NCBI GenBank assembly: GCA_950295325.1
Contig: OX485803.1
Location: forward strand, 68,649,554 to 68,713,553
DNA: 64,000 nt
DNA from: Polytrichum commune
Taxonomy: Eukaryota; Streptophyta; Polytrichopsida; Polytrichales; Polytrichaceae
Reading direction: 5' to 3'
Under the pieces are notes generated by a model. The model did no database searches. It was not told the DNA's origin and saw only the letters and a program-made list of their open reading frames with translations. A program made the translations under genes and the position numbers. Of the stretch, positions 11,041 to 63,300 are shown piece by piece. Numbering within the stretch: position 1 is the first letter of the stretch; every line of letters starts with the position of its first letter.

Positions 11041-12135
11041 TTATAATCTAGTGTCAACTTTATTGGGTAAAGACATGTTTGGTGCACCATCCTTTCCATT
11101 GCCAGTATATGATTGTGTTGCTTCTTGTTGGTGGTTACCTTGTTCTTCTGGGATAAATTCAAGTATATCTTTTAAATCTTGTTCTCCAAAAAGATCATTT
11201 TCTTGAGCTTGATCTGGATGTGATAGCAGTATCTCCTTGAGATAATCCTCCACGTCCAACATCTCTCTCTCTCTTTCCACAGTAGCCATCCAGAGTTCGA
11301 ATTCACTTGGTTGTTGCATCATACTTTGTTGTGGCATGTTGTAGGCCTCATGATGTCTCGTGTGCACTTGGTGTTGGGATTGTCGATATTCACCTTGATT
11401 CGCAACATATCCTAGTGGTCGCTGTGTTGCAACATCCCACTGTGGATCTTGTTGTTCATCCATTGTCAAAGGTGTTGCATCATTGACATATCTTGAAGTT
11501 CTCTGATTGTTGTGAGTCGCTTGAGGTGGTTCATAATTTTGTACAAAGTCTTCAGGATGGACTAGAAAATTACCTTCTACCTTCCCTATATTTATCGGTG
11601 TACTAGAAACCCCCACATTTTTCCACCTTTCATAAAACTCTAATATTGCTCGTTGATTACTCTGTAGTGTCTCCTTAAACTTGTTTAAGAGGTTACGCTC
11701 ACTCATGATTTGTAGCTCGTTGACCGTAAATTTCCGTAACCGTGGATCAATCCTTATGTGGTGAAGCTCCAAATTGTATTTGTATCGGTTAGCCTCGTGC
11801 TCAAGAGCCTCAACATGTGCCAACGCGTAGTAGAGGGCCACGAGCTTTGGGTCCGTATGTTGTCCTTGCTCTTGTTTCTTCAAGTATTTGTACAATACAT
11901 GCGCTTTCGTGTTGCTCGAAAACTCGCATAGTTTGCCTCGCGGTGTGAACATGATGAGTGTCACATCCGCCCCACACAACATCGCTAGTTCTCTTGCTTT
12001 CTTCAAAAGTCCTTCGCGACGGTTCATGAATGTCGCGTTCCTCTTCTTCTCCGTTGGTTGCCTTTCAATTACGATTCTCTTCCTCCCTTGTCGATTCTCT
12101 TGCCGATTAGTCGGCAAATTTTCGTTTGGTTCCAT
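11041..12135 (-). CDS. MADS-box transcription factor, intronless
   Basis: A single uninterrupted frame encodes about 364 residues from the Met at 12133-12135 to stop TAA at 11041-11043. The MADS domain lies at about residues 18-76: it opens GRKRIVIERQ, has the conserved core REGLLKKARELAMLCGADV and closes TLIMFTPRGKLCEFSS. MADS domains bind CArG boxes in DNA as dimers in the nucleus. The start is chosen because the MADS domain normally lies near the N terminus; in-frame Mets also exist at 12193-12195 and 12244-12246. After the domain come a charged helical stretch (KFTVNELQIMSERNLLNKF) that may be a weak K-like region, a Gln/His-rich middle and an acidic tail (EDYLKEILLSHPDQ and later DLKDILEFIPEEQ) that could be an activation segment. 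Lack of introns fits type I MADS genes or a retroposed copy; the coiled-coil-like part would be unusual for type I. Confidence 0.85.
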   Translation of the reverse strand: MEPNENLPTNRQENRQGRKRIVIERQPTEKKRNATFMNRREGLLKKARELAMLCGADVTLIMFTPRGKLCEFSSNTKAHVLYKYLKKQEQGQHTDPKLVALYYALAHVEALEHEANRYKYNLELHHIRIDPRLRKFTVNELQIMSERNLLNKFKETLQSNQRAILEFYERWKNVGVSSTPINIGKVEGNFLVHPEDFVQNYEPPQATHNNQRTSRYVNDATPLTMDEQQDPQWDVATQRPLGYVANQGEYRQSQHQVHTRHHEAYNMPQQSMMQQPSEFELWMATVEREREMLDVEDYLKEILLSHPDQAQENDLFGEQDLKDILEFIPEEQGNHQQEATQSYTGNGKDGAPNMSLPNKVDTRL

Positions 12136-12246
12136 CTTGGTAACGGGTATTTTTGATAACATAGTTGCAAATTTAGCATTGTAAAAAGACTCCATTGCAA
12201 AAATAAAGAATATAGTTTGGAGAAATGACCTATGGTGAAAGATCAT

Positions 12247-12591
12247 GATTCTTAGGTGTGGATTCTTAGATATAATTTTTTTTTCTATCTATGCAAAAGA
12301 TAAAAGTAAGTCTAAATCATGTTACTTAAAGTAAAATTCACTTGTATTTAACTCAAAAATAAAAGTGTGTTATGATTATCAACCCCCCTCCCCACACATC
12401 GAGGTACATGTAAAATAAGGCTTTTACTTTTATTAAAGACCAAGTAGGGTATTGGTATTTGAAGATACTTTTGTTTTTCATGTGATCATTTTGGGTCTAT
12501 ATACCATCTGAGACCCCTAAAAGCTAGGACCTTTATTTGTCACACTACTGTGACATTCATACCTAGGACCTCTATTTGTCAAACTACTTTA
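12247..12591. other. Upstream region of the MADS-box gene
   Basis: AT-rich DNA with no clear TATA box in the expected orientation. It contains a near-duplicated phrase ACCTAGGACCTCTATTTGTC / GCTAGGACCTTTATTTGTC at about 12523-12575. Nothing else recognisable. Confidence 0.4.
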
Positions 12592-28512: not shown

Positions 28513-28906
28513 GAGCATCCTCAGTCGGTCTAGGTAAAGCTCATTGCAAACCAAGACCTATCTTGCTTAAAATTGCTCAAAATTTAGAGGGAGTGCACCA
28601 AATCTTGCTTAAAATGGACAGATCCTCCCACACTCCCTCTAAATGTCAAAAATTTGGAGGGAGTGTGGGAGGATCTTTCCATTTTAAAGCAAGATTTGGT
28701 GCACTCCCTCTAAATTTTGAAAATGTGGTGTTTTCAATGAGGGATTTCACCTACGTCAAATTTTTACGATTCTTTTTTCTTGAGAAATATCTCACGTTTA
28801 TTTAGGTGTGCTTCTAATGATGGTAATTTCAGTTTCTAATTTTAGGTCAGTCAAAAGATAGGTTTTGGTTTGCAGTGAGCTTTACCTAGACCGACTGAGG
28901 ATGCTC
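28513..28906. mobile_element. Tourist-like MITE, almost wholly palindromic
   Basis: A 394-bp element flanked by TAA at 28510-28512 and 28907-28909. Terminal inverted repeats of about 50 bp begin GAGCATCCTCAGTCGGTC. A second, inner palindrome of about 65 bp per arm (28580-28644 against about 28645-28715; AGGGAGTGCACCAAATCTTG and its complement) shows only a few mismatches. The whole element could fold into one long hairpin. The TAA duplication and GAGCATC ends fit PIF/Harbinger (Tourist) MITEs. Confidence 0.88.
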
Positions 28907-38692: not shown

Positions 38693-41187
38693 ATAGACGA
38701 GTTTTGTACACAATGTGCATAAAATCATCACCATATTATTTTCCAAATAATACACATGAAAGACTGTCCCACGAAATTCTGATACTTTCTGTTGTTTTAG
38801 CTTTTCCCCTGTTTGCTCTTTTCACTCCAGATTTTTGCATCTTCCGTTACAACTTGGAATATTATCCAACTCATTTTAGCAATTGCGAAATGACAATGCT
38901 TGACCTGAGTTTCTTGTTGCATGATAGGCATTCTTGAATTCTTCTGCCTTTGGTTTGAAACTGTGCAGACATCAGTAGATGTGTTGGAATCTCGCTACTG
39001 ACTTGTTGGGAGGCATTCCCTCCATGGTCGCGAACTGCACCCTCAAGAATTTAGTCTGTTCCTTCCCGCAGATTGTGTCAAATGTCTCTACCATATTCCG
39101 AATTTCTGCAGACTTTGTGTATGTATGTACATCTTCCACGCAATGAGCACCTCAACAGTTTAAATGTAACACAAACCAGGTTGAGAAATTAGAGTTTCGT
39201 TCATATTGTGCATGGATACGGCTAGTCGTGTCAAGCCATCATTGAGAACTGTTTATATTTTTTCCATGGTTGGAATTTTGTTTTCAGTCAATGCAGGTGC
39301 GCCAACTACCGTCCGTCCCGGTGAATGGGCAGAGAATGCCTTCCTCACTTCATGCAACATGTACTCAGGAGCATCCGCCTAAGTGCCTGACTACATTTGA
39401 AAGCTACTTCTTTCACAGCTTTTGAGAACAAAGAAAGAATGTTTATCCTTTTTTCTTTAATTTCTTCTTGTTTCTGAAACACTAGACATTTGGTTGTTTG
39501 ATGCTAATTTTGAAAACACAACACTGGATAATAAATAAATTCTCCACTAAGTGTATGGTAGTGCTCGAGGTGCCGGGAAATGCACTATAAGCTTGTCCAG
39601 CTCGGCTAATCGGGAATTAATGGATTCTGCTCTTTGCTCTGATCAGTAATTAGGGCTCCAAATTCTATTGAGCGAAAGCCTCAAAAATCTGCTCTGTATA
39701 ATGTGATTAGCATGAGTATAATAATATCGAATTAGGGATAATGTCGGCTTTCATTCTGCCAGACTCGACTTCGGATCCAACTTTCGTAGAGGAATGAAGC
39801 TCTAGTCACTTGAATCATCCCCACGGCAGTGTCAGGGGGTGATGATTTATGATTTTTGGATTCCTCATCATACCTAGTTGCCTCCTATTCCTTTCATTTT
39901 CAAGCTCATATACTCTTACCGCCATGGCCGCCTACGGATATATGCCTTAAATCAATTTCCTGCAACTGTAGATTGTCACGTCCACCGCCAGAGAATCCAG
40001 AGGAAGAAACCTGGTTTGAGGTTACAAATTAAACACGTCTCCTCCCATGTCGATCTGAAAACAAGATTGCACGTCACCAATTGTCCTCACAGATCGGATT
40101 GCACCAAGTTTCTTCGCGCGTCCACACTTGTATAAATCATCAACTGCGCCATGCTAATGTAGCTGCGGAAGTTGAAGTAGCAGCCATCTCCATTCGTGCA
40201 ATCTGGTGCTATTTGGTGTTGATTGCTCGTGTATGCCACCTCAACGTATTTTTTGCCAGCTCAGAAGTGCCTGCGAACTCAGCAGAACGCAGAAAGTTAA
40301 AATATCTGGATTGTTCGTTTCTATTAGGAAGAGTTTTCGTGCCTTTCGCGTGATTAAAATTCCAGGTACTTGGTGTGTCTCTCACACTTGCTTACTCATT
40401 CGTTACAGCAAGAATTACAGCATTATCCTGTACTCAGTGCACATGATGTACTTTAGTTTGTTGATTGTTTCATCCAAATTATCTATGATTGTCTTCAGCA
40501 ATTGGTGTTGAAGTTTTCGCACAGTCCATCTCCAAGTATCTCAGCTTTAGTTTGTAGTTAGCTGTTGCAGCATCTGAAATTGATGAAATGAAAATTCCTT
40601 ATCCCGACACCCATGCACATCGATGGCAGATCGTGATCCATGCATACTGCACATAGAAGCATCAAGTTGATCCAGGAGGGGCAAAGTTGAGCACAGGAAC
40701 TTCCCTTAAAATACTCGATGTCTGAACTCCTGAGCTCATATATATTTTCCCCTGGATACGCCTTACCTTTACACTTCAATATAAGAACTCGCCTTAGCCT
40801 TAAAACTAATTTATACCACTCCCTGCAACTGTAGCGTTGGCCAACCCCGATCGACATCTTGGATCGGATGGACATCTTAGGGCACATGCACCGATCTCCG
40901 CTGATCCGCGTGAGCATCTTGATATTTAATTCATCACCACCACCACCAGATTGATGCTCATGCTCCCTATATATGAACGCCATAGCCAAGGTACACTTGA
41001 TGAATGATGAGATTCTACCGATGATTCGAGGCACGACAGCCTTCTGGTTGAATACTGCACTACATATGATAATTAGTGTCACTTCCTATTTGGATTTGCA
41101 GTGCTGTATCTGTAGTGTACTTAAATGTAAAAGTGACTGGTGATAAGCAGCCCTCGTGGTGGAGACTACAGGGTCGATTCTCCACGG
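38693..41187. other. Gene-less stretch
   Basis: Holds the 3' untranslated region of the C2 gene and unassigned DNA. Open frames at 39878-40135 (+) and 40558-41082 (-) show no recognisable domain; their status is unknown. Confidence 0.4.
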
Positions 41188-41195
41188 CTATAAAA
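41188..41195 (+). promoter_or_regulatory. TATA box upstream of the hairpin cluster
   Basis: TATAAAAA in the context CACGGCTATAAAAAGCTGC, a textbook plant TATA box. A start of transcription would be expected near 41220, about 315 bases before the first hairpin. No long open frame follows; the nearest is the 24-codon MSTTIMSLGKSMGNHF frame at 41291. The promoter call is inference from motif and position. Confidence 0.45.
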
Positions 41196-41535
41196 AGCTG
41201 CAGTCTCCGTAAGGCGGTAAATCACTTCCAATTCCTCTCTCATCATCCTGCAGCGAGCTTCCTTGACGTTCTACGATCATTAGGAACCACCATGAGTACT
41301 ACTATCATGTCGTTGGGGAAATCGATGGGCAACCACTTCTCGCCGTTCAGTCAGTTTAGTCGTTAATATCCTTGCTGTATGCGAGCACTGATTTTAAACC
41401 CCGACGAGATAGAGAGTGATACTTTGCAGACTAAGCTAGGTAGATGTCATATTGCATCGAGGGAGATCATCATATATCCAAGGGAGCAGCTAGCAGTGGA
41501 TGAGAGTCATCAATTATAAGCAGCCAGCTCAAAGC

Positions 41536-41667
41536 TTCATGGTTCAGTCGGCCTATTCGTAGCCAAATTCACCTAACATGTGTTCTCCTCATTCTTTTGA
41601 TCATGACAGGATTGGTGTCATTGTGTCAGTGAATTTGCTGCGAGTGAACTGAACGAACTATGAATCA
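41536..41667 (+). ncRNA. MIRNA-like hairpin 1 of 3
   Basis: The 5' arm 41536-41572 (TTCATGGTTCAGTCGGCC then TATTCGTAGCCAAATTCAC) pairs with the 3' arm 41629-41666 (GTGAATTTGCTGCGAG then TGAACTGAACGAACTATGAA). The stem is about 37 bp with several mismatches and G-U pairs. The loop of about 55 bases resembles that of hairpin 3 (TTGATCATGACAG against TTAATCATGACAG), so the two are tandem duplicates about 385 bp apart. The strand is inferred from the TATA box; the structure itself is strand-neutral. Confidence 0.5.
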
Positions 41668-41730
41668 GGAACCACCATTAGTGCTTGATAAGAGAGGTCA
41701 AGTTAGTGTTTTGCAGTTTCAACTACCTGT

Positions 41731-41842
41731 CACCGTTCAGTCAGTTTATTCGCCGCCAGGTTCACATTGATGGTCCTGCATGCTCTCTGTTTCAAGTGAC
41801 GTATCAATGAGAACCTTGGGGTGGATAAACTGAACGGACGCT
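41731..41842 (+). ncRNA. MIRNA-like hairpin 2 of 3
   Basis: The 5' arm 41731-41770 (CCGTTCAGTCAGTTTATTCG and on to AGGTTCACATTGA) pairs with the 3' arm 41805-41842 (TCAATGAGAACCTTGG then GGATAAACTGAACGG). There is a 4-base bulge (AGTC) in the 5' arm. It shares the GTTCAGTCAGTTTATTCG core with the other two hairpins, but the loop is shorter and different. Confidence 0.5.
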
Positions 41843-41920
41843 GATTCACTTCCCACGAGATGGCGCCGAGTCGACGAGGTGCACTCACGATGATACTTGG
41901 AGATTAGCCGGCCAGTTGAA

Positions 41921-42052
41921 ATTCATGGTTCGGTCAGTTTTATTCGCAGCCAGATTCACCTGCCATGCGCTTTCCTCTTTCTGTTAATCATGACAGAAAA
42001 GATGCGACTGTATCAGGGAATCTGACTGCGAATAAATTGAACGAATTATGAT
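41921..42052 (+). ncRNA. MIRNA-like hairpin 3 of 3
   Basis: This is the best-paired of the three. The 5' arm 41921-41960 (TTCATGGTTCGGTCAG then TTTTATTCGCAGCCAGATTC) pairs with the 3' arm 42015-42052 (GAATCTGACTGCGAATAAAT then TGAACGAATTATGA). By eye there are about 35 pairs with two mismatches, one single-base bulge and three G-U pairs. Stem length, near-perfect pairing and a loop of about 55 bases are within the range of plant MIRNA precursors. I do not recognise a known mature miRNA in either arm. Confidence 0.55.
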
Positions 42053-43951
42053 AAGTTCCAAGTCCAAATGGCTTTGGCGAGCTTTGTATACATGCTTCAG
42101 TCAAGCTCGCCCAAGGGATGTTAATAATCACCTTCAGGCAGCAGGCTCACACAGGAGGTTAGCGTTGAGAAGATCATGGAAGGTACAGAAGTGTTCTCAC
42201 CATTATTCTAGTACTCTTGTTATATATGATCCTCATAGTTCATGCAATTAGTTTTTGCGTGCTTGTTGTTGCGCAGGAGTTGTTGACCCATTTCGCACAG
42301 TACTGCGGGATCAGTCCTGAGGCTCGATCTTGTGCGGGTTCTTGGGATTTGCGATCGAAAATCCCATCCACATCGACGACCATGCATCACAACCTGCGCA
42401 CGCCCACTCATTCAGCATGTGCTTGACTTCGGATGGTAATGTTTGTTCCATCCAAGCAAGTCTCTGAGTTTTATCAGTGGTAGCCATCACAGAACTCACT
42501 GGTAGATATATTATAGGACCTAGCCTTACTGCTCCCTGACCTTTGATCGGGGAGAACCGGCAGTTACTCAGTTGAGTTTGAGAAATAGCCGGTTGAAGTT
42601 CAAGACTGCAGGAAAATTACCGATCATTTTAGAGGAATTTATAGAATATACCCCAATTTCATAAAGGAACACCGAAGGATGTCAACATGTAACCGGTTGG
42701 ACTTGCAAACTCTAGGATCTCAACCGATTATGCCCAAAAATCTCCCGGATCACTGTCCCTGACTGCAGGGAAGTGCTCTCTCAAATAAGGATCCTCTCCT
42801 TTGAGACAGCGCTTCGCAATCATGCATCAGGTCCTAGCCTTTAATAAGGACTAGACAGATTCTAAAGCGGTGAATGTATTTACCAGCCTTGTAATTTGTA
42901 ATCAAGTCTATTTGACACGGGTCTGACACATGAATATAATTCTCCTGGGGTGGCAACTCTCCCTTTTATAAAGTTGTTCCTCCATCACTTCTATTGGAAT
43001 AGTGACTTGTTCTTGCACAAAGAGGAGAAACATGCTTGAAAAGAGGAAATTGATAGGACTCCGTTGATAAGATCTATGTTTGAATTGGAAAAGGTTTGCA
43101 CTTGCTAGAGTCAATTTTAGAAGTGATTAAAAGCAATTCTCCTAAACTAGGAGTCCACCATCCAAATCCACTAGATGTTGAATCTCACTTCTAAGGAATT
43201 TAATTGGATTTCTTTAAAAAAAATACCCTTAAAAATGTTGTGCATGATGCAAAAACTAATTGCAAATAGTAGCCCCCAAAGTGCTAATAAATAAAAGTAA
43301 CGTCAAGGTTTAGTTTATACACCGACATGAATGGGAGCCCATTCTTCTATACCTTGGTGTCATGTTTAACCAAGCGTCATAGTAAGGGTACTTCCTCCCT
43401 CTCAAAAGGAGGGCTCCTTTAGTTTAATATGCGCAGGGCCTTACGTCTAGGGGGTAGGGGGGGGGGTGTTAAGGAGTTTGTTTGTTGTCTAGTTTCCTTT
43501 TATTTCATATTAGATAGATGAGGTATTTAATGATAATCTGGTATAATTGTTTCATGAGTGTTCTAACTTTGTTTTTGGGTATTTTGAGTCTTTTTAATTC
43601 TTTAATTGGTTGTTCATGGATAGCTCCTCTAACGATGGTTGTGATAGTGATGAGAGGGGCCCCCAAAGTGCTCTGGACTATCTGTTTTTGTGAGATATTG
43701 TTGTGACACGTTCTTGAATTCCAGCTCCTCACTACTTAGCAAACATAAGCAAATATTTGAACCCTAGCTTGTTTGTATCAAGGAATCCTCACTTGAAATT
43801 CCTACAAGTCTTTCAAAATTCACTACATATTGGAACAGAAATGAGGGAGACTTTTGCACACATCTTTGATGTCACTCCTGTTTCATTTGTCAAAAATAAA
43901 CTACAGTAGTAAATAAATAAATCTTCAACGTCACATGTAAGGCTCATGTAA
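42053..43951. other. Gene-less stretch
   Basis: No supported gene. A G-run lies at about 43450-43467. The sequence up to about 42250 could still belong to the transcript from the 41188 TATA box. Confidence 0.4.
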
Positions 43952-45860: not shown

Positions 45861-48800
45861 CTACTGGTAGTTATCCAGTCCGAGGTCACGAAGAGCAGCC
45901 GAACCAACATCTTTACAAGTCTCGTGAGTATCCTTGGCCTTCCGCAGCAACGGCTCCAGTCCTTTTTCAAGTATCAAAGGCCTGCACACAAAACAAAACA
46001 AAAACACGAGTAACTTCACTTTTCAAACTTTAGAATTTTTTTTTTTTTTTTTAAAAGTTCATCCTGGAAAATATGAACTAAAAATTCTGCAACTGCTAGG
46101 TCGTTATGCAGTAAGCCGTCAGGCACAACAGTGTAAAACCTCCTTTGCACAAGAGCTCAAATTGAGAGTTTCAACTTGCCATTTTCTGGAGTTTGATGCT
46201 TGGGAGTTGACAAGCTTCAATCCAAAGCTCAAACTATTGAGGTTGATGAATCTTCAAGTTCTCAATAGTTTGAGCAAAGCATAAAGTGGCCATGCTCCAA
46301 ATGAAATATCAAGCAGGGATTGATACTAGACAAAGGAGCATTCTCAGTGAATGAGCGTGTATAAGAGGCTCCCCGCCAACAAGAGGGCTCCTTTCTTTGA
46401 GCTCTCAACCTCTAGTGCAAATAAAGGGGGCCTAAATAATAACCTTGTAAATCTTGATTCTAGTCTAGCAAAATTGTAACCTTAGTGCTGCCTGCACAGT
46501 TACAGCTTCAAAACGAGGATACTAATTCATGCCATGAAACAACTCTAAAATGCTGAAGGTGCATCTAATATTTGTAAGTACCTGTTCTCGGGATTTCGGA
46601 CAGACAAGTTACGTATCATTTGGCAAGCTTGGCGTAGCATAGAGGCAGCACTTGGATGTTTTTCCATCTGCTCTACAGCCACATCTACAGAGCCAGCTTC
46701 AACTGCCTTGGTTGCGTTATTTGGTGATCTTAAAGTCAAAGTAGCTATGGCTGCAAATCCCTGCACACCCCAAAATTTTCAGTCAGATAAGGATCACAAT
46801 TTTGAATATTGAGATGTAAAGAAAAATTGAAATGCTTAATCACAAGCAAGGAAGAAAGATGAATCCGAAGCTGCCACCGGCATGAATTATAATGTTGATT
46901 CATCTTCAAGTTGGTCTGAGTCTGCATGTAATCCCGAAACGGACATCACAAGAATTAGAGGGCCCCAAACAAAGGTGAACACCTTGACCAGTTGTGGACA
47001 AGCTAGGTTACAACTATCTATCTCCCACAAGGACAAGCCCCTAGGTTCCCACATGACTATCTATCTCCCACAAGGACAAGCCCCTAGGTTCCCACATGGT
47101 TAGTTGAAAATACCCAGTTCACCCAAGTCACTCCACTATGATTGATTGGGTGGACCATAGGTGGTAGTTTGTACCAGAAATCAAGTGCTAGGAAGGTCAC
47201 CCATCCAAGTACAATTCCAGCCTTAGGTGGCTTAACCTCAGAGTTCGCATGGGATCCAGGTTAAGGCCTTGGGTTTAACCCAGTGTTGATCTGGTATATA
47301 GGTGAATGCATGTCGTCAAGAATCCACATTTATAATAGTATCAAATACCCTACCCATGGGTATAAAAATTGCAATACCAATCAAATATTGATAATTGTTG
47401 AGTATGTCAAGGTACACCCGCGTTATTATTTGGGTCAATATCATTCTAAACCATATTAATACTAGGACGATTTTACCTAAGTATGAAGGTTCTTGCATGT
47501 AATATCTACCCAAATGGTATCAAAAACAAAAATACCATCAAATATGCATACCCTACAGCTAGAGAAAAATGTGAAATCCTCATTATACATACCTGAATGG
47601 TATATGAAATAAGATGATACCAGTCCAACACTGGTTTAAGCCATCTTACATCACAAGTATTTCAAGTCTGTTGCACGAACACATAATCCTAAGATATCAA
47701 AAGACACTACTATCAGAAAAATGTGTGGGCAAAGAGATCACCTCTTGGAGAACTGATGGTTCCTCGGAATAAGTGTTCATGAGATTAATAATCTTGGTTA
47801 GTCCACCACTTTTCACGATTGCATCCTTGTTTGCATCACTGCCTGCCAACTGCAATTACACCTACCATATATAAGACACAACACAGGCATGATCGAGAAC
47901 ATCAATACACCTGATTCTAAAAACAGGAGGACCAATCTGGTAAGTGCAGTAATAAACTTGGGCAAGGATATACGGTTGAGTTATGATTAATTTGATCTTG
48001 ACATTAGCTTTCCTAATATTTCTGGAGAGTAGTTCAAAGTGAAAGCCCATTGAACAAAAGGGCAAAAAATTTGCTTGACAGATAAACGACTTATATATAT
48101 GAATTAAGGAAACCATTTTACATGTACTAATGCAGATATTACCACTTACCTTCCCACATTTTGAAGCTAAAACCTGTCCCAAATGATAGAAACCATCCAA
48201 GAAATCAATTGCTCAGAGCCATATGGAAAAAGAGAAACAATAGTACCTGAGAAAGTAGTGCACATGCACTTTTGGCGACAACTTTGTTTGGATATGTTGT
48301 AGTGTAATCCAAAAATTGCAGCACCATATTCAGACCACCTTCGTCTGCTATGGTCCTGCAGATCTCATCCTGGAACGAAGAAAAAAAAGGATCAATTCCT
48401 CCTTATCATTGTAACAAACAAGTGTTAGGGTTTAGAAGGCTAATCAATTGATATCCATAGATTAGTTAGTACGTGGTGAACATCAAAAAAAAAACACACC
48501 AACACTAGCAGATACGTCCATGAAACCTTCTAATCATGGACTTGCATTTCATTGCTGTGATATATCATCTTTGCCCTAAAAACAAGAGGATGATGAATAG
48601 CATTATGAACTACAAATAAGTTGAGCTGAATGGCAATCCAATGGTTCAGCCCCTTACATTCACAGCAAGGCTCTTCAGCGTGATACAGATAGTTGGCAAA
48701 ATTGGTGTTGACTTCGCTTTCTGAGGCAAGATTGCAAGAATTGCATCAACTGCACCTGCTTTAGCTATCTTCATTGCATTTCTATATGCCTGTGTGAAAA

Positions 48801-60370: not shown

Positions 60371-63300
60371 GAGTGGTATGTATATGTGAAGTCTATTAAT
60401 TCTTGCCATCCAGACTTCATGATGTTGAATCCCTTTACTAACAACCATTTTATCATTCCTCGATTACTTTCCACTATAGTAACTCAGTGTATCGTCAAAT
60501 ACCTTGTGGTGAAGCATCACAAGGTACCATTGCAGTGTTCCAGGTGAGAGCATTTTAAATTTCATCACCTAATCTTTTCATGTAGAAATTTTTTCCTGTT
60601 TATTTCCAATGTACAGAAAATTACTTCATGGAGAAATTAATCAACTACTGGCTGTTCAAGAAATGATTGGAGTTAAATTTGTTCAGAAACTTTAGAATGT
60701 GGGTAGTTTTGTTTGGTTCTGAACCTGCCAAATTTTGTGCATTTCACCTCATTTGAGTGGTTTTTCTCTGAAGTGACTCGTACCCGTCTATCGACTTCAC
60801 TTATAGGATTGTTTGGTTAGATTAGAGTTGTGCATGGTCTGTTTGGATATCTGAGTGCAGTGCAAATGATGGTATACACTTGATCTCTGAGAAATCAGGT
60901 AAGTTGCAATGACGAAATATTGGTAGCTGATGCACTGCACTCTTATTCCTGAGTTGTCCTAGTATTTGTTTTTTTGCTTGATGCAGCAGCATTGCCTTCT
61001 GCTCATTTCCAGTTTTAAGCTCTTTAATCTCCACCTTTGGTATCAAAATAGGTAGATTTTATATTCAGGGGCCCTGAATTAGTTTTTCATTTTGGTTTTG
61101 GATTGGTATTGAAAGGAGGAGCAGGAAGTCCAAAGTTTGGTGTCACACTGCAAATCAATCCTAATCCCAATGCTCAGTATTTCTTTGCAATGAATCTGAT
61201 AAATAATTTGTGCAAATCCTGTATAAAGTGCACACACCTTGTTTTTGGGGAATATGATATTGTTCAGATTGGAGAACAGTTTTTTGCATAGTGTAAAGGA
61301 GAGAAAGGTCATCAAATAACCTGTCAAATTGAAGTCGATGTAAGTTGTTAGTGCCTCCACTTTTTTCATTTCATGACTTTTTTGGGTCTTTTGTAATGAT
61401 GCTAACTTATGATCAGTGAGCATGACGTAGAGATGAACACAAATTGTGGCTAGGTTTAGAGATAGATAAAGGCAAAGGTGCAAGGTTGCAAGAGGACTTG
61501 ATCAGAAAGGTGATGGTGCATACAACACTGGATGCATGGCAAGACTTGCTTTAAAGGTTCATTTATCTTCAATTTAATTATAATTTGCAACCCTTCATAC
61601 ATGGTTTCCCAATGTCTGAAAACATCTCTTGCATTGTACTCTCAAGCCTATTCCAAACCTTTTATTTCTAAGACTACCACTTCTACAACTCTGAACCATT
61701 TAAACATCACTTTTTTTTATTGGTTCAAAGCAATTATTCTCATGCCTACTTTCAAGCCTTTTACAAACCCTTTCTCTACCTTCTTCCTATGCTTTGATGC
61801 AATATACATACATATATATATATATATACACATACACACACAAAGAGTACAAGGTTCTGAAAAGGTGGGAAAAACAGTGTCCTGCTCAAGGTTACATCCA
61901 TATCTTTGGAACCTCAAAAATCTTGGATTTTGACAAGAGTTTGATGCCTATGCTGGGTGTCAAGGTACAACTGATCAAATGCATGGGGGGGGGGGGGGGG
62001 GGTTGGTTGTCAATTGCACACTGGAGATGAGATGCAAGTTGTGCATTGGTACTCCAAATTTTCCGTTGGTCACAAATCTTCCAAATACGACTGAAAGCAA
62101 TACCATGTGGGGGTTCACACCAACCTGCTCGTTTTTTGAGCCAGTAGTGATTTATTTGGATGAGACAATGGCAGGCATGAATCATATGGAGGCTTATTAT
62201 CTATCTGGGTCATGGCAACCAGAGGCGTTTGATTGCAATTCTTGAGTAATTGACCAAATTTTTTCCACCAAAACTCTTAATCACCAAGTAATGACGGATG
62301 TTTGACAAGATTTCTTCTATTGAATGTCAGTAGGCAGAACATGAAGTAGAAACATGCACGGTGGTGGTGGCTATGAATATTTGAGAAATTTTAGTGTCAG
62401 CGGTGCTTTTGTCATCGTCAATAAAAAAATTCCTTCAAACCTCAGAAATTATTAGATTGGGAGTTGAAAGGCAATTAACCCCTAAGCATCTATGAGGCCT
62501 CATCTGGGGCTCTACATGTACGAAAATGTGTATTTAAGCTACAAATTTTCATTTTAACCCACTTCACTCTAACCTTCCTAATATCAAGCATGTGGGAATC
62601 AAAGTGGATTTTTAACATATATGTGTATGGCCTTATCAACTAGAATGAGTCAATTGGGCCATTATGAGACAATCCTTTTGTCACAATTGATGAGATCTTC
62701 CATATTATAATTGATTATTTGCATGGTTTTATAAACATGTGTGGGTGTATTGGAATGGTTGAGTTGTATTTTAAGAACCGTCAACGGGTATTCTCTTGTA
62801 CCAACTAGCAATCATTACGTTTCCATCACATTCCCTACATTAAATTGAGCAGACCAATTGCCTCATTTTAGTTGATAAGGCCTGTGATAATTGAGAATTA
62901 TTGTATTGTATGACATAATGGAATAACATAAATTCAGCATTATAGTAATGACAATAATCATAATGATGGCAATGTTATGTGTGCAAGTGTGTGGTTAAAA
63001 ATCTTTGGTGACTTACTTTAATGTCAAAACCCATGATATAAGGGAGGGTAATATGACAACAACGCGGGAGATTTAAAATGAGAACATCTGTTCCCTAGAG
63101 GTTTTGAGATGTAAGAGAAGGAGTGACATTAAAGAAGATGGTATTATGGAGGTTAGGGTGTATCTTCAAAATTGACCCTATCTAAAATTGAAATCAAAAT
63201 CTTCTTGTAGCACACTTTAAATCGATTGAATACCTTAGAAACATAAAGCCTGGATACCCTTGGATGCAAATACATATTTAAATGCTTACATGTGTTGCAT

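What the first reader, a model, noticed from the sequence alone, without database searches (positions are those of the whole stretch)
41188..42052. Tandem cluster of three related MIRNA-like hairpins behind a TATA box
Three inverted repeats (41536-41667, 41731-41842, 41921-42052) share the core GTTCAGTCAGTTTATTCG in the 5' arm and a complementary TAAACTGAACG-type core in the 3' arm. The third pairs over about 35 bases with two mismatches and one bulge. Hairpins 1 and 3 are homologous through loop and flanks, so the cluster grew by tandem duplication while the stem was kept. No protein-coding frame of note exists here, and a clean TATA box precedes it at 41188. I recognise no known mature plant miRNA, so this may be a lineage-specific polycistronic MIRNA or phased-siRNA locus. 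Arms and motif are seen; transcription and processing are inferred.
Basis: partly seen in the sequence, partly recalled or inferred. Interest (0 to 1): 0.75.

Follow-up and report, generated by a model that had tools for sequence, protein, structure and literature searches.

The report
MicroRNA gene cluster targeting F-box gene
In what is probably a moss genome, three tandem RNA hairpins look like a young microRNA gene cluster that arose from, and probably silences, an F-box gene on the same chromosome; it is a new case of a known kind of regulator, and its expression is still unproven.

Summary
The hairpins are real. H1, H2 and H3 fold far better than shuffles (z -3.4, -7.2, -8.0). They lie in a 385-390-nt tandem duplication that also holds a decayed fourth hairpin, H0. 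No further copies of the array, H2 or H3 were found in the 408-Mb genome, so this is not a foldback-transposon family.

A second cluster at C1:10.296-10.327 Mb holds six related hairpins. For 9 of 9 hairpins the reverse-complemented 5' arm best matches one 37-nt stretch of an F-box/kelch gene at C1:42.60 Mb. Candidate 21-mers of 6 of 9 score 3 or less against that mRNA; 0 of 540 shuffles do. A second F-box gene carries a weaker site at a non-homologous position. In five aligned hairpins 8 of 31 pairs show compensatory change.

Best reading: a MIRNA family probably born by inverted duplication of an F-box gene, now in two clusters, repressing that gene from the 5' arm. An exact miR536 copy points to a bryophyte. 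No small-RNA data were available, so transcription, processing and cleavage are inferred. New member of a known kind.

The parts
41014..41030 (+). Upstream motif TCTACCGATGATTC(GAG), shared with two loci of cluster 2
   Evidence: 14-nt exact with L057:7889-7902 (E 0.034) and 16 of 17 with L057:5087-5103 (E 0.013); not found upstream of L014 or L056
41188..41196 (+). TATA box CTATAAAAA, probable core promoter
   Evidence: Sequence; TATA-like boxes at L057:5219 and L057:8016 in similar order after the shared motif. Function inferred
41217..41234 (+). Probable transcription-start region
   Evidence: 15 of 18 identical to L057:5253-5270, E 0.24; 29 nt after the TATA box. Inferred
41279..41663 (+). 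Repeat unit 1 (H0 + H1)
   Evidence: Repeats D1, D4, D6 at spacings 385-390; alignment A1
41332..41420 (+). H0, decayed hairpin
   Evidence: 28 of 33 columns of the 5' arm kept, 16 of 60 of the rest; z -1.84
41536..41667 (+). H1, MIRNA-like hairpin
   Evidence: z -3.42; candidate guide 41554-41574, star 41629-41648; scores 4 on L026 and 6 on L023
41664..42055 (+). Repeat unit 2 (H2 + H3)
41729..41845 (+). H2, MIRNA-like hairpin
   Evidence: z -7.15; candidate guide 41747-41767, star 41809-41829; scores 4.5 on L023
41922..42052 (+). H3, MIRNA-like hairpin, the best preserved of the window
   Evidence: z -7.96; candidate guide 41941-41961 TATTCGCAGCCAGATTCACCT, star 42017-42036; scores 3 on L023 and 4 on L026

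Best explanation
A polycistronic MIRNA locus of a young, lineage-restricted family. SHOWN: the hairpins, their tandem duplication, related hairpins in a second cluster on the same chromosome, pairing kept through sequence change, and likeness of the 5' arms, in antisense, to one 37-nt stretch of an F-box/kelch gene. INFERRED: transcription from the TATA box at 41188; dicing of each stem to a guide of about 21 nt from the 5' arm (TATTCGCAGCCAGATTCACCT in H3); loading into Argonaute; cleavage or repression of the F-box mRNA L023 (C1:42.60 Mb) and perhaps of a second F-box mRNA, L026 (C1:67.7 Mb). The family most likely began as an inverted duplication of a piece of the F-box gene, so that one arm is antisense to its parent; it then split into two overlapping registers (alpha and beta) and multiplied by local duplication.
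For: Folds: H1-H3 z -3.4, -7.2, -8.0; L010 -7.6, L014 -5.9, L057a -6.6, L057b -7.3, L056 -8.9, L060 -7.3. Duplexes of H1-H3, L010 and L014 have few unpaired guide bases. 8 of 31 pairs with compensatory change in five hairpins; 0 of 500 shuffles reach any of the five measures. Between the two units the stems are kept while the spacer has diverged (31 of 38 and 31 of 42 against 46 of 111). No further copies. In 9 of 9 hairpins the reverse-complemented 5' arm best matches the same F-box stretch, above the best of 15 shuffles each. Target scores 3 or less for 6 of 9 candidates on L023, none of 540 shuffles, and no score under 6 on the antisense strands for the nine candidates. The L026 site turned up independently in the genome pattern search (L015). 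TATA and upstream motif recur.
Against: No small-RNA, transcript or degradome data. L023 was found through H3 and L060 through L023, so part of the likeness is selected for; guide registers were chosen by me. H1 and L057b score only 6 on L023, H2 4.5. Only L023 and L026 of 30 F-box loci have a site under 6 for most candidates (L048 4.5 for L057b). Likeness to the F-box gene does not extend past the 37-nt stretch, so the inverted-duplication origin is not proven. The + strand folds better in H1-H3 and L057a but worse in L010 and L056, and the model scores L056 and L057b higher on the minus strand. The L026 site may lie outside the exon. Promoter matches to the window have modest E-values (0.013-0.66) and none upstream of L014 or L056.
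Confidence: 0.76

Rival explanations
1. An inverted-repeat locus that gives heterogeneous siRNAs rather than precise miRNAs (a proto-MIRNA): young inverted duplications of the F-box gene are diced at many places and silence it in bulk.
For: L056 and L060 are long, nearly perfect foldbacks (36-nt arms 89% and 50-nt arms 82% complementary); both strands of several hairpins fold well.
Against: H1-H3 have MIRNA-like mismatched stems, arm-specific conservation of the target-facing 5' arm and compensatory changes, which fit selection for one processed duplex.
Confidence: 0.12
2. A MIRNA relic: the cluster once made miRNAs but is now silent and decaying.
For: H0 has decayed; the candidate guides of H1 and H2 have drifted from the L023 site (6 and 4.5).
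Against: H3 folds at z -8 and scores 3; stems kept better than spacer; promoter-like elements remain.
Confidence: 0.05
3. Genuine MIRNA cluster, but the F-box link is not its function: the working guide is another register or the 3' arm, with other targets.
For: The lower-stem box GTTCRGTCAGTTT is kept even in H0 and in both clusters although it does not face the F-box site; the whole transcriptome could not be scanned for targets.
Against: 9 of 9 hairpins match the same F-box stretch with the 5' arm; scores beat 540 shuffles; the lower-stem 21-mer has no more genome matches than its control.
Confidence: 0.06
4. A foldback-transposon (MITE) family.
For: Inverted repeats of 100-150 nt; a dispersed repeat lies just downstream (42541-42755).
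Against: Only the window itself is found with the array, H2 or H3; relatives are confined, as far as found, to one other cluster.
Confidence: 0.01

Closest known systems
Woodland-strawberry MIRNA clusters that regulate F-box genes (Xia et al. 2015; seen only as described in the review PMC6139297, passages; the paper is not held)
   Same: Two clusters of recently evolved miRNA genes aimed at F-box genes
   Different: Seed plant; the review says one of those miRNAs triggers phased siRNAs, which could not be tested here; sequences were not compared
Arabidopsis MIRNA genes born by inverted duplication of protein-coding genes (PMC1790633, abstract and passages)
   Same: Foldback arms like a protein-coding gene family; some such miRNAs regulate the family they came from
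   Different: There nearly all non-conserved families are single genes; here nine hairpins in two clusters, in an early land plant; likeness to the parent limited to 37 nt
miR536 of Physcomitrella and other early land plants (PMC1838911, PMC4957126, PMC9291395, passages)
   Same: Early-land-plant miRNA reported to cleave F-box genes; an exact copy is in this genome
   Different: Different sequence; the exact copy lies 3' of its probable partner arm (L053, 552 nt between), whereas the guide here is on the 5' arm
Cloned Physcomitrella small RNA 3-91, predicted target a kelch F-box protein (table of PMC1838911)
   Same: Moss small RNA with a predicted kelch/F-box target
   Different: Sequence GCUGUGUUCUUGUACCUGGG does not resemble these guides by eye; not aligned by a call

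Membership tests
Plant MIRNA gene | Stem-loop whose guide/star duplex has few mismatches and bulges (about 5 or fewer; criterion recalled) | tested here: met
   Unpaired guide bases 1, 2, 3, 2 in H1, H2, H3, L010 and 1 in L014 for the registers used; L057a, L057b, L056 and L060 not computed
Plant MIRNA gene | Folding clearly better than shuffled sequence | tested here: met
   0 of 200 shuffles for all nine hairpins; H0 fails (12 of 200)
Plant MIRNA gene | Precise accumulation of guide and star small RNAs | not testable with these tools
   No small-RNA reads on hand
Plant MIRNA gene | Near-perfect target in an mRNA | tested here: met
   By prediction only: 6 of 9 candidates score 3 or less on L023, 0 of 540 shuffles
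MIRNA born by inverted duplication of its target gene | Both arms resemble the gene beyond the guide | tested here: inconclusive
   5' arms 9 of 9 match L023:1948-1984; 3' arms of 5 of 9 also there, of H1, H2, L010, L014 elsewhere; no likeness past that stretch
miR536 | Mature sequence UUCGUGCCAAGCUGUGUGCAAC | tested here: not met
   The genome's three matches (up to 3 mismatches) are L053-L055, none in the window or cluster 2
Any Rfam miRNA family | Reaches the family's gathering score | tested here: not met
   Only snoR101 in the window; MIR172 19.9 of 70 bits, mir-618 21.6 of 96
Foldback transposon (MITE) | Many dispersed copies | tested here: not met
Phased-siRNA (PHAS/TAS) locus | 21-nt phased small RNAs from a cut transcript | not testable with these tools
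   No small-RNA reads

The most novel reading that the evidence does not exclude
Two MIRNA classes of common descent, alpha (window cluster and part of cluster 2) and beta (cluster 2), have diverged to guides offset by about 10 nt on one F-box/kelch mRNA, giving overlapping dual repression, while a second F-box paralog gained a site independently at a non-homologous position. It would be a bryophyte MIRNA-F-box arms race seen in one genome from birth (near-perfect beta foldbacks) through maturity (H3) to decay (H0).
Probability: 0.35. Interest if true: 0.6.

Novelty: new member of a known kind. Interest (0 to 1): 0.47.

Why it matters
The well-described young MIRNA families that target their gene of origin are, to my knowledge, mostly from flowering plants (general knowledge; passages). 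A case in an early land plant, with hairpins of apparently different ages, near-perfect to decayed, and the presumed parent gene on the same chromosome, would let birth, spread and loss of MIRNA genes be followed in one genome. It also suggests small-RNA control within an expanded F-box family (73 matches to the target protein).

Tried and rejected
Core motif CGTTCAGTCAGTTTATTCGCC as the guide: 4 genome matches, two of them the window itself, against 5 for the control; rejected as the target-facing part.

Leucine-rich-repeat origin (arm read as VNLAANKLTER): an idea only, replaced by the F-box match, where the stretch reads VNLTANT.

MIR172 and mir-618 likeness in Rfam: far below gathering scores. 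miR536 membership: not met. In L053 the 146-nt local folds were no better than shuffles, so its precursor rests on the distant arm alone.

Mature strings in print: 12 strings in two searches, 0 papers; main texts of the held library only, no supplements. Topic searches for such a cluster in bryophytes (listings, of which 9 of 9, 3 of 3, 15 of 291 and 15 of 30 were shown) named none that I could recognise as this one.

Other pattern hits: L015 (kept as the L026 site), L016 (tandem array), L017-L022 were read. The model found nothing at E up to 1 in L016, L017, L018, L020, L021, L022, L006, L007, L011, L053, L058 and L059; L019, L054 and L055 were not given to it. Weak model hits not counted: window 47426-47517 minus, E 0.049; L056:3313-3418, E 0.53. 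Nine of 23 places (control 5) are one repeat, ATTCGTAGCCAGGATCAC; loci of that call could not be cut out, so its remaining new places were not inspected.

Species: not identified; paper searches did not settle it. PDB search with the F-box protein: nothing.

Full report
NAMES. L023 and L011 cut out the same F-box gene. L010 and L014 are L057:8064-8182 and L057:2663-2781. L057a is L057:5270-5374, L057b is L057:5454-5542, L056 is L056:6628-6720, L060 is L060:249-349.

OBSERVATION. H1, H2 and H3 fold at -45.1, -56.4 and -60.9 kcal/mol (z -3.42, -7.15, -7.96; 0 of 200 shuffles each). They are part of a 385-390-nt tandem duplication: unit 1 holds a decayed hairpin H0 plus H1, unit 2 holds H2 plus H3. 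Aligned, the units agree at 28 of 33 columns in the H0/H2 5' arm, 16 of 60 in the rest of H0, 46 of 111 in the spacer, and 31 of 38, 38 of 54 and 31 of 42 in the 5' arm, loop and 3' arm of H1/H3. The + strand folds better than the antisense in all three (-45.1/-32.8, -56.4/-42.4, -60.9/-57.0). That preference is not general in the family: L057a agrees (-54.3/-48.8), L010 (-59.4/-63.9) and L056 (-53.0/-57.2) go the other way, and L014, L057b and L060 were folded on the + strand only.

COPY NUMBER. DNA searches of the whole genome with the array, H3 and H2 return only the window; one search also lists H3's own reverse complement. The tool skips very common words.

RELATIVES. A 22-nt pattern from the H3 5' arm with up to 3 mismatches gave 5 places (control 0): H3, H2, the H3 3' arm in antisense, L010 and L011. 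A degenerate version gave 14 places (control 3) and added L014, L015 and others. L010 (z -7.6) and L014 (z -5.9) are hairpins 5.4 kb apart at C1:10.30 Mb. A covariance model of H1-H3, L010 and L014 (R1) found three more hairpins in the 29.8 kb fetched there: L057a (plus strand, E 1.7e-6, z -6.6), L056 (minus strand E 4.3e-6, plus strand 6.4e-5; z -8.9 on plus) and L057b (minus strand E 0.016, plus strand 0.045; z -7.3 on plus); folds. A pattern taken from the F-box stretch gave 4 places (control 0): the F-box gene, the two arms of L056, and L060 at C1:10,326,548-10,326,648 (z -7.3), whose surroundings are 81% identical to those of L056. Cluster 2 thus has at least six hairpins over 30.2 kb, C1:10,296,427-10,326,648; C1:10,319,600-10,326,299 was not fetched. 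In five aligned hairpins 8 of 31 pairs show a compensatory change and none of 500 shuffles reaches the observed value on any of five measures; the structure came from the same alignment, and shuffles do not keep relatedness.

TARGET GENE. L023 (C1:42,604,426-42,605,598, + strand) lies in an open frame of 471 aa. Its 391-aa query has 73 matches in the genome. Of six family frames scanned, the F-box domain reaches Pfam's cut-off in L026, L030 and L034 but not in L023 (14.3 of 20.5 bits), L024 or L029; Kelch_6 reaches it in L023 (26.0 of 25.3). For 9 of 9 hairpins the best ungapped match of the reverse-complemented 5' arm to the 1,413-nt frame lies within L023:1948-1984, above the best of its own 15 shuffles; the margin is least for H1 (13 against 11). 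The 3' arms of H1, H2, L010 and L014 match best elsewhere (scores 9, 9, 12, 9), the other five in the same stretch. So the antisense 5' arm is the arm that keeps its likeness to the F-box gene, which is why I take it as the guide. Partly circular: L023 was found through H3 and L060 through L023; L010 and L014 came from H3 alone, and L056, L057a and L057b from the hairpin model alone.

TARGET SCORES (sense strands of 30 F-box loci, 117,543 nt). On L023: L057a 2, L060 2, H3 3, L010 3, L014 3, L056 3, H2 4.5, H1 6, L057b 6. On L026: H1, H3, L010 and L014 4, H2 5.5, L057a 6. L057b scores 4.5 on L048. In the lists shown no other of the 30 loci scores under 7. The antisense strands give 6 or more for these nine. 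Of 540 shuffled 21-mers (half mononucleotide, half dinucleotide shuffles) none scores 3 or less, one scores 4 and five score 5 or less. Registers were chosen by me after looking at all U-starting 21-mers of five 5' arms. The L026 site was also found independently by the genome pattern (L015). It lies upstream of the F-box domain, at a place not homologous to the L023 site; no Met precedes it in that frame, so whether it is exonic is unknown.

PROMOTER. TCTACCGATGATTC lies upstream of the window cluster (41014) and of L057a and L010 (L057:5087, 7889). TATA-like boxes follow at 41188, 5219 and 8016, and 41217-41234 matches L057:5253-5270 at 15 of 18. E-values of the window matches are 0.013-0.66; the two cluster-2 loci match each other at 1.8e-9; nothing matched the window upstream of L014 or L056, and L057b and L060 were not tested.

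ORGANISM. An exact 22-nt ppt-miR536 (sequence read in PMC1838911) is at C5:24,482,980 (3 matches, control 2), with a complementary arm 552 nt upstream. Passages of PMC4957126 and PMC9291395 place miR536 in bryophytes and Selaginella. Seven contigs hold at least 380 of the 408 Mb (my sum of contig lengths and hit positions). A moss is likely; the three moss assemblies have 11 pseudomolecules, so it is none of those; Polytrichaceae with seven chromosomes is recalled, not tested.

VERDICT. Shown: hairpins, duplication, relatives, kept pairing, antisense likeness to the F-box gene. Inferred: transcription, dicing, Argonaute loading, repression. Inverted duplication of the F-box gene is the simplest origin, but no likeness beyond the 37-nt stretch was detected, so it is not proven. 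I rate it a new member of a known kind: a young clustered MIRNA family. Searches for the mature strings found no paper, within the limits of the held library.

Noticed in passing
L054:1501-1522 (C6:13711886-13711907): A miR536-like site with 2 mismatches lies antisense in a 968-aa open frame with sub-threshold TIR (23.1 of 28 bits) and AAA/NTPase (25.4 of 32.6 bits) matches: a possible miR536 target that is not an F-box gene.
   Followed up: partly
L053:925-1522 (C5:24482980 region): Exact miR536 whose partner arm (19 nt, 89% complementary) is 552 nt upstream, so the precursor would have a very long or spliced loop; the local 146-nt folds are no better than shuffles.
   Followed up: partly
41344-41361 and the same box in H2, H3, L010, L057a and the start of L060: The lower-stem box GTTCRGTCAGTTT is kept in the decayed H0 and, with changes, in both clusters although it does not face the F-box site; unexplained, perhaps a second small-RNA register.
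   Followed up: partly
L060:41-75: What looks like a further decayed alpha hairpin start (GTCGTTCGGTCAGTTCTCGCAG) just upstream of the L060 hairpin.
   Followed up: no
L016:1498-2080 (C4:32047080 region): Tandem array of about 183-bp units carrying four variants of ATGTGAATT(T)GGCTGCGAATC, like the alpha target site; transposon-like surroundings; perhaps chance, perhaps a decoy.
   Followed up: partly
window 42541-42755: Repeat just downstream of the cluster, 87.6% identical to L059:2580-2805, some kilobases from the F-box gene L026.
   Followed up: no
window 28577-28720: Nested inverted repeats, 38-nt arms 97% and 36-nt arms 94% complementary.
   Followed up: no
window 60871-60934: C/D-box snoRNA snoR101, 45.3 bits over a cut-off of 40.
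   Followed up: no
window 11044-12288 minus: Single open frame of 415 aa with a MADS (SRF-TF) domain, 64.1 bits.
   Followed up: no
window 47426-47517 minus: Weak hit of the hairpin model, E 0.049.
   Followed up: no
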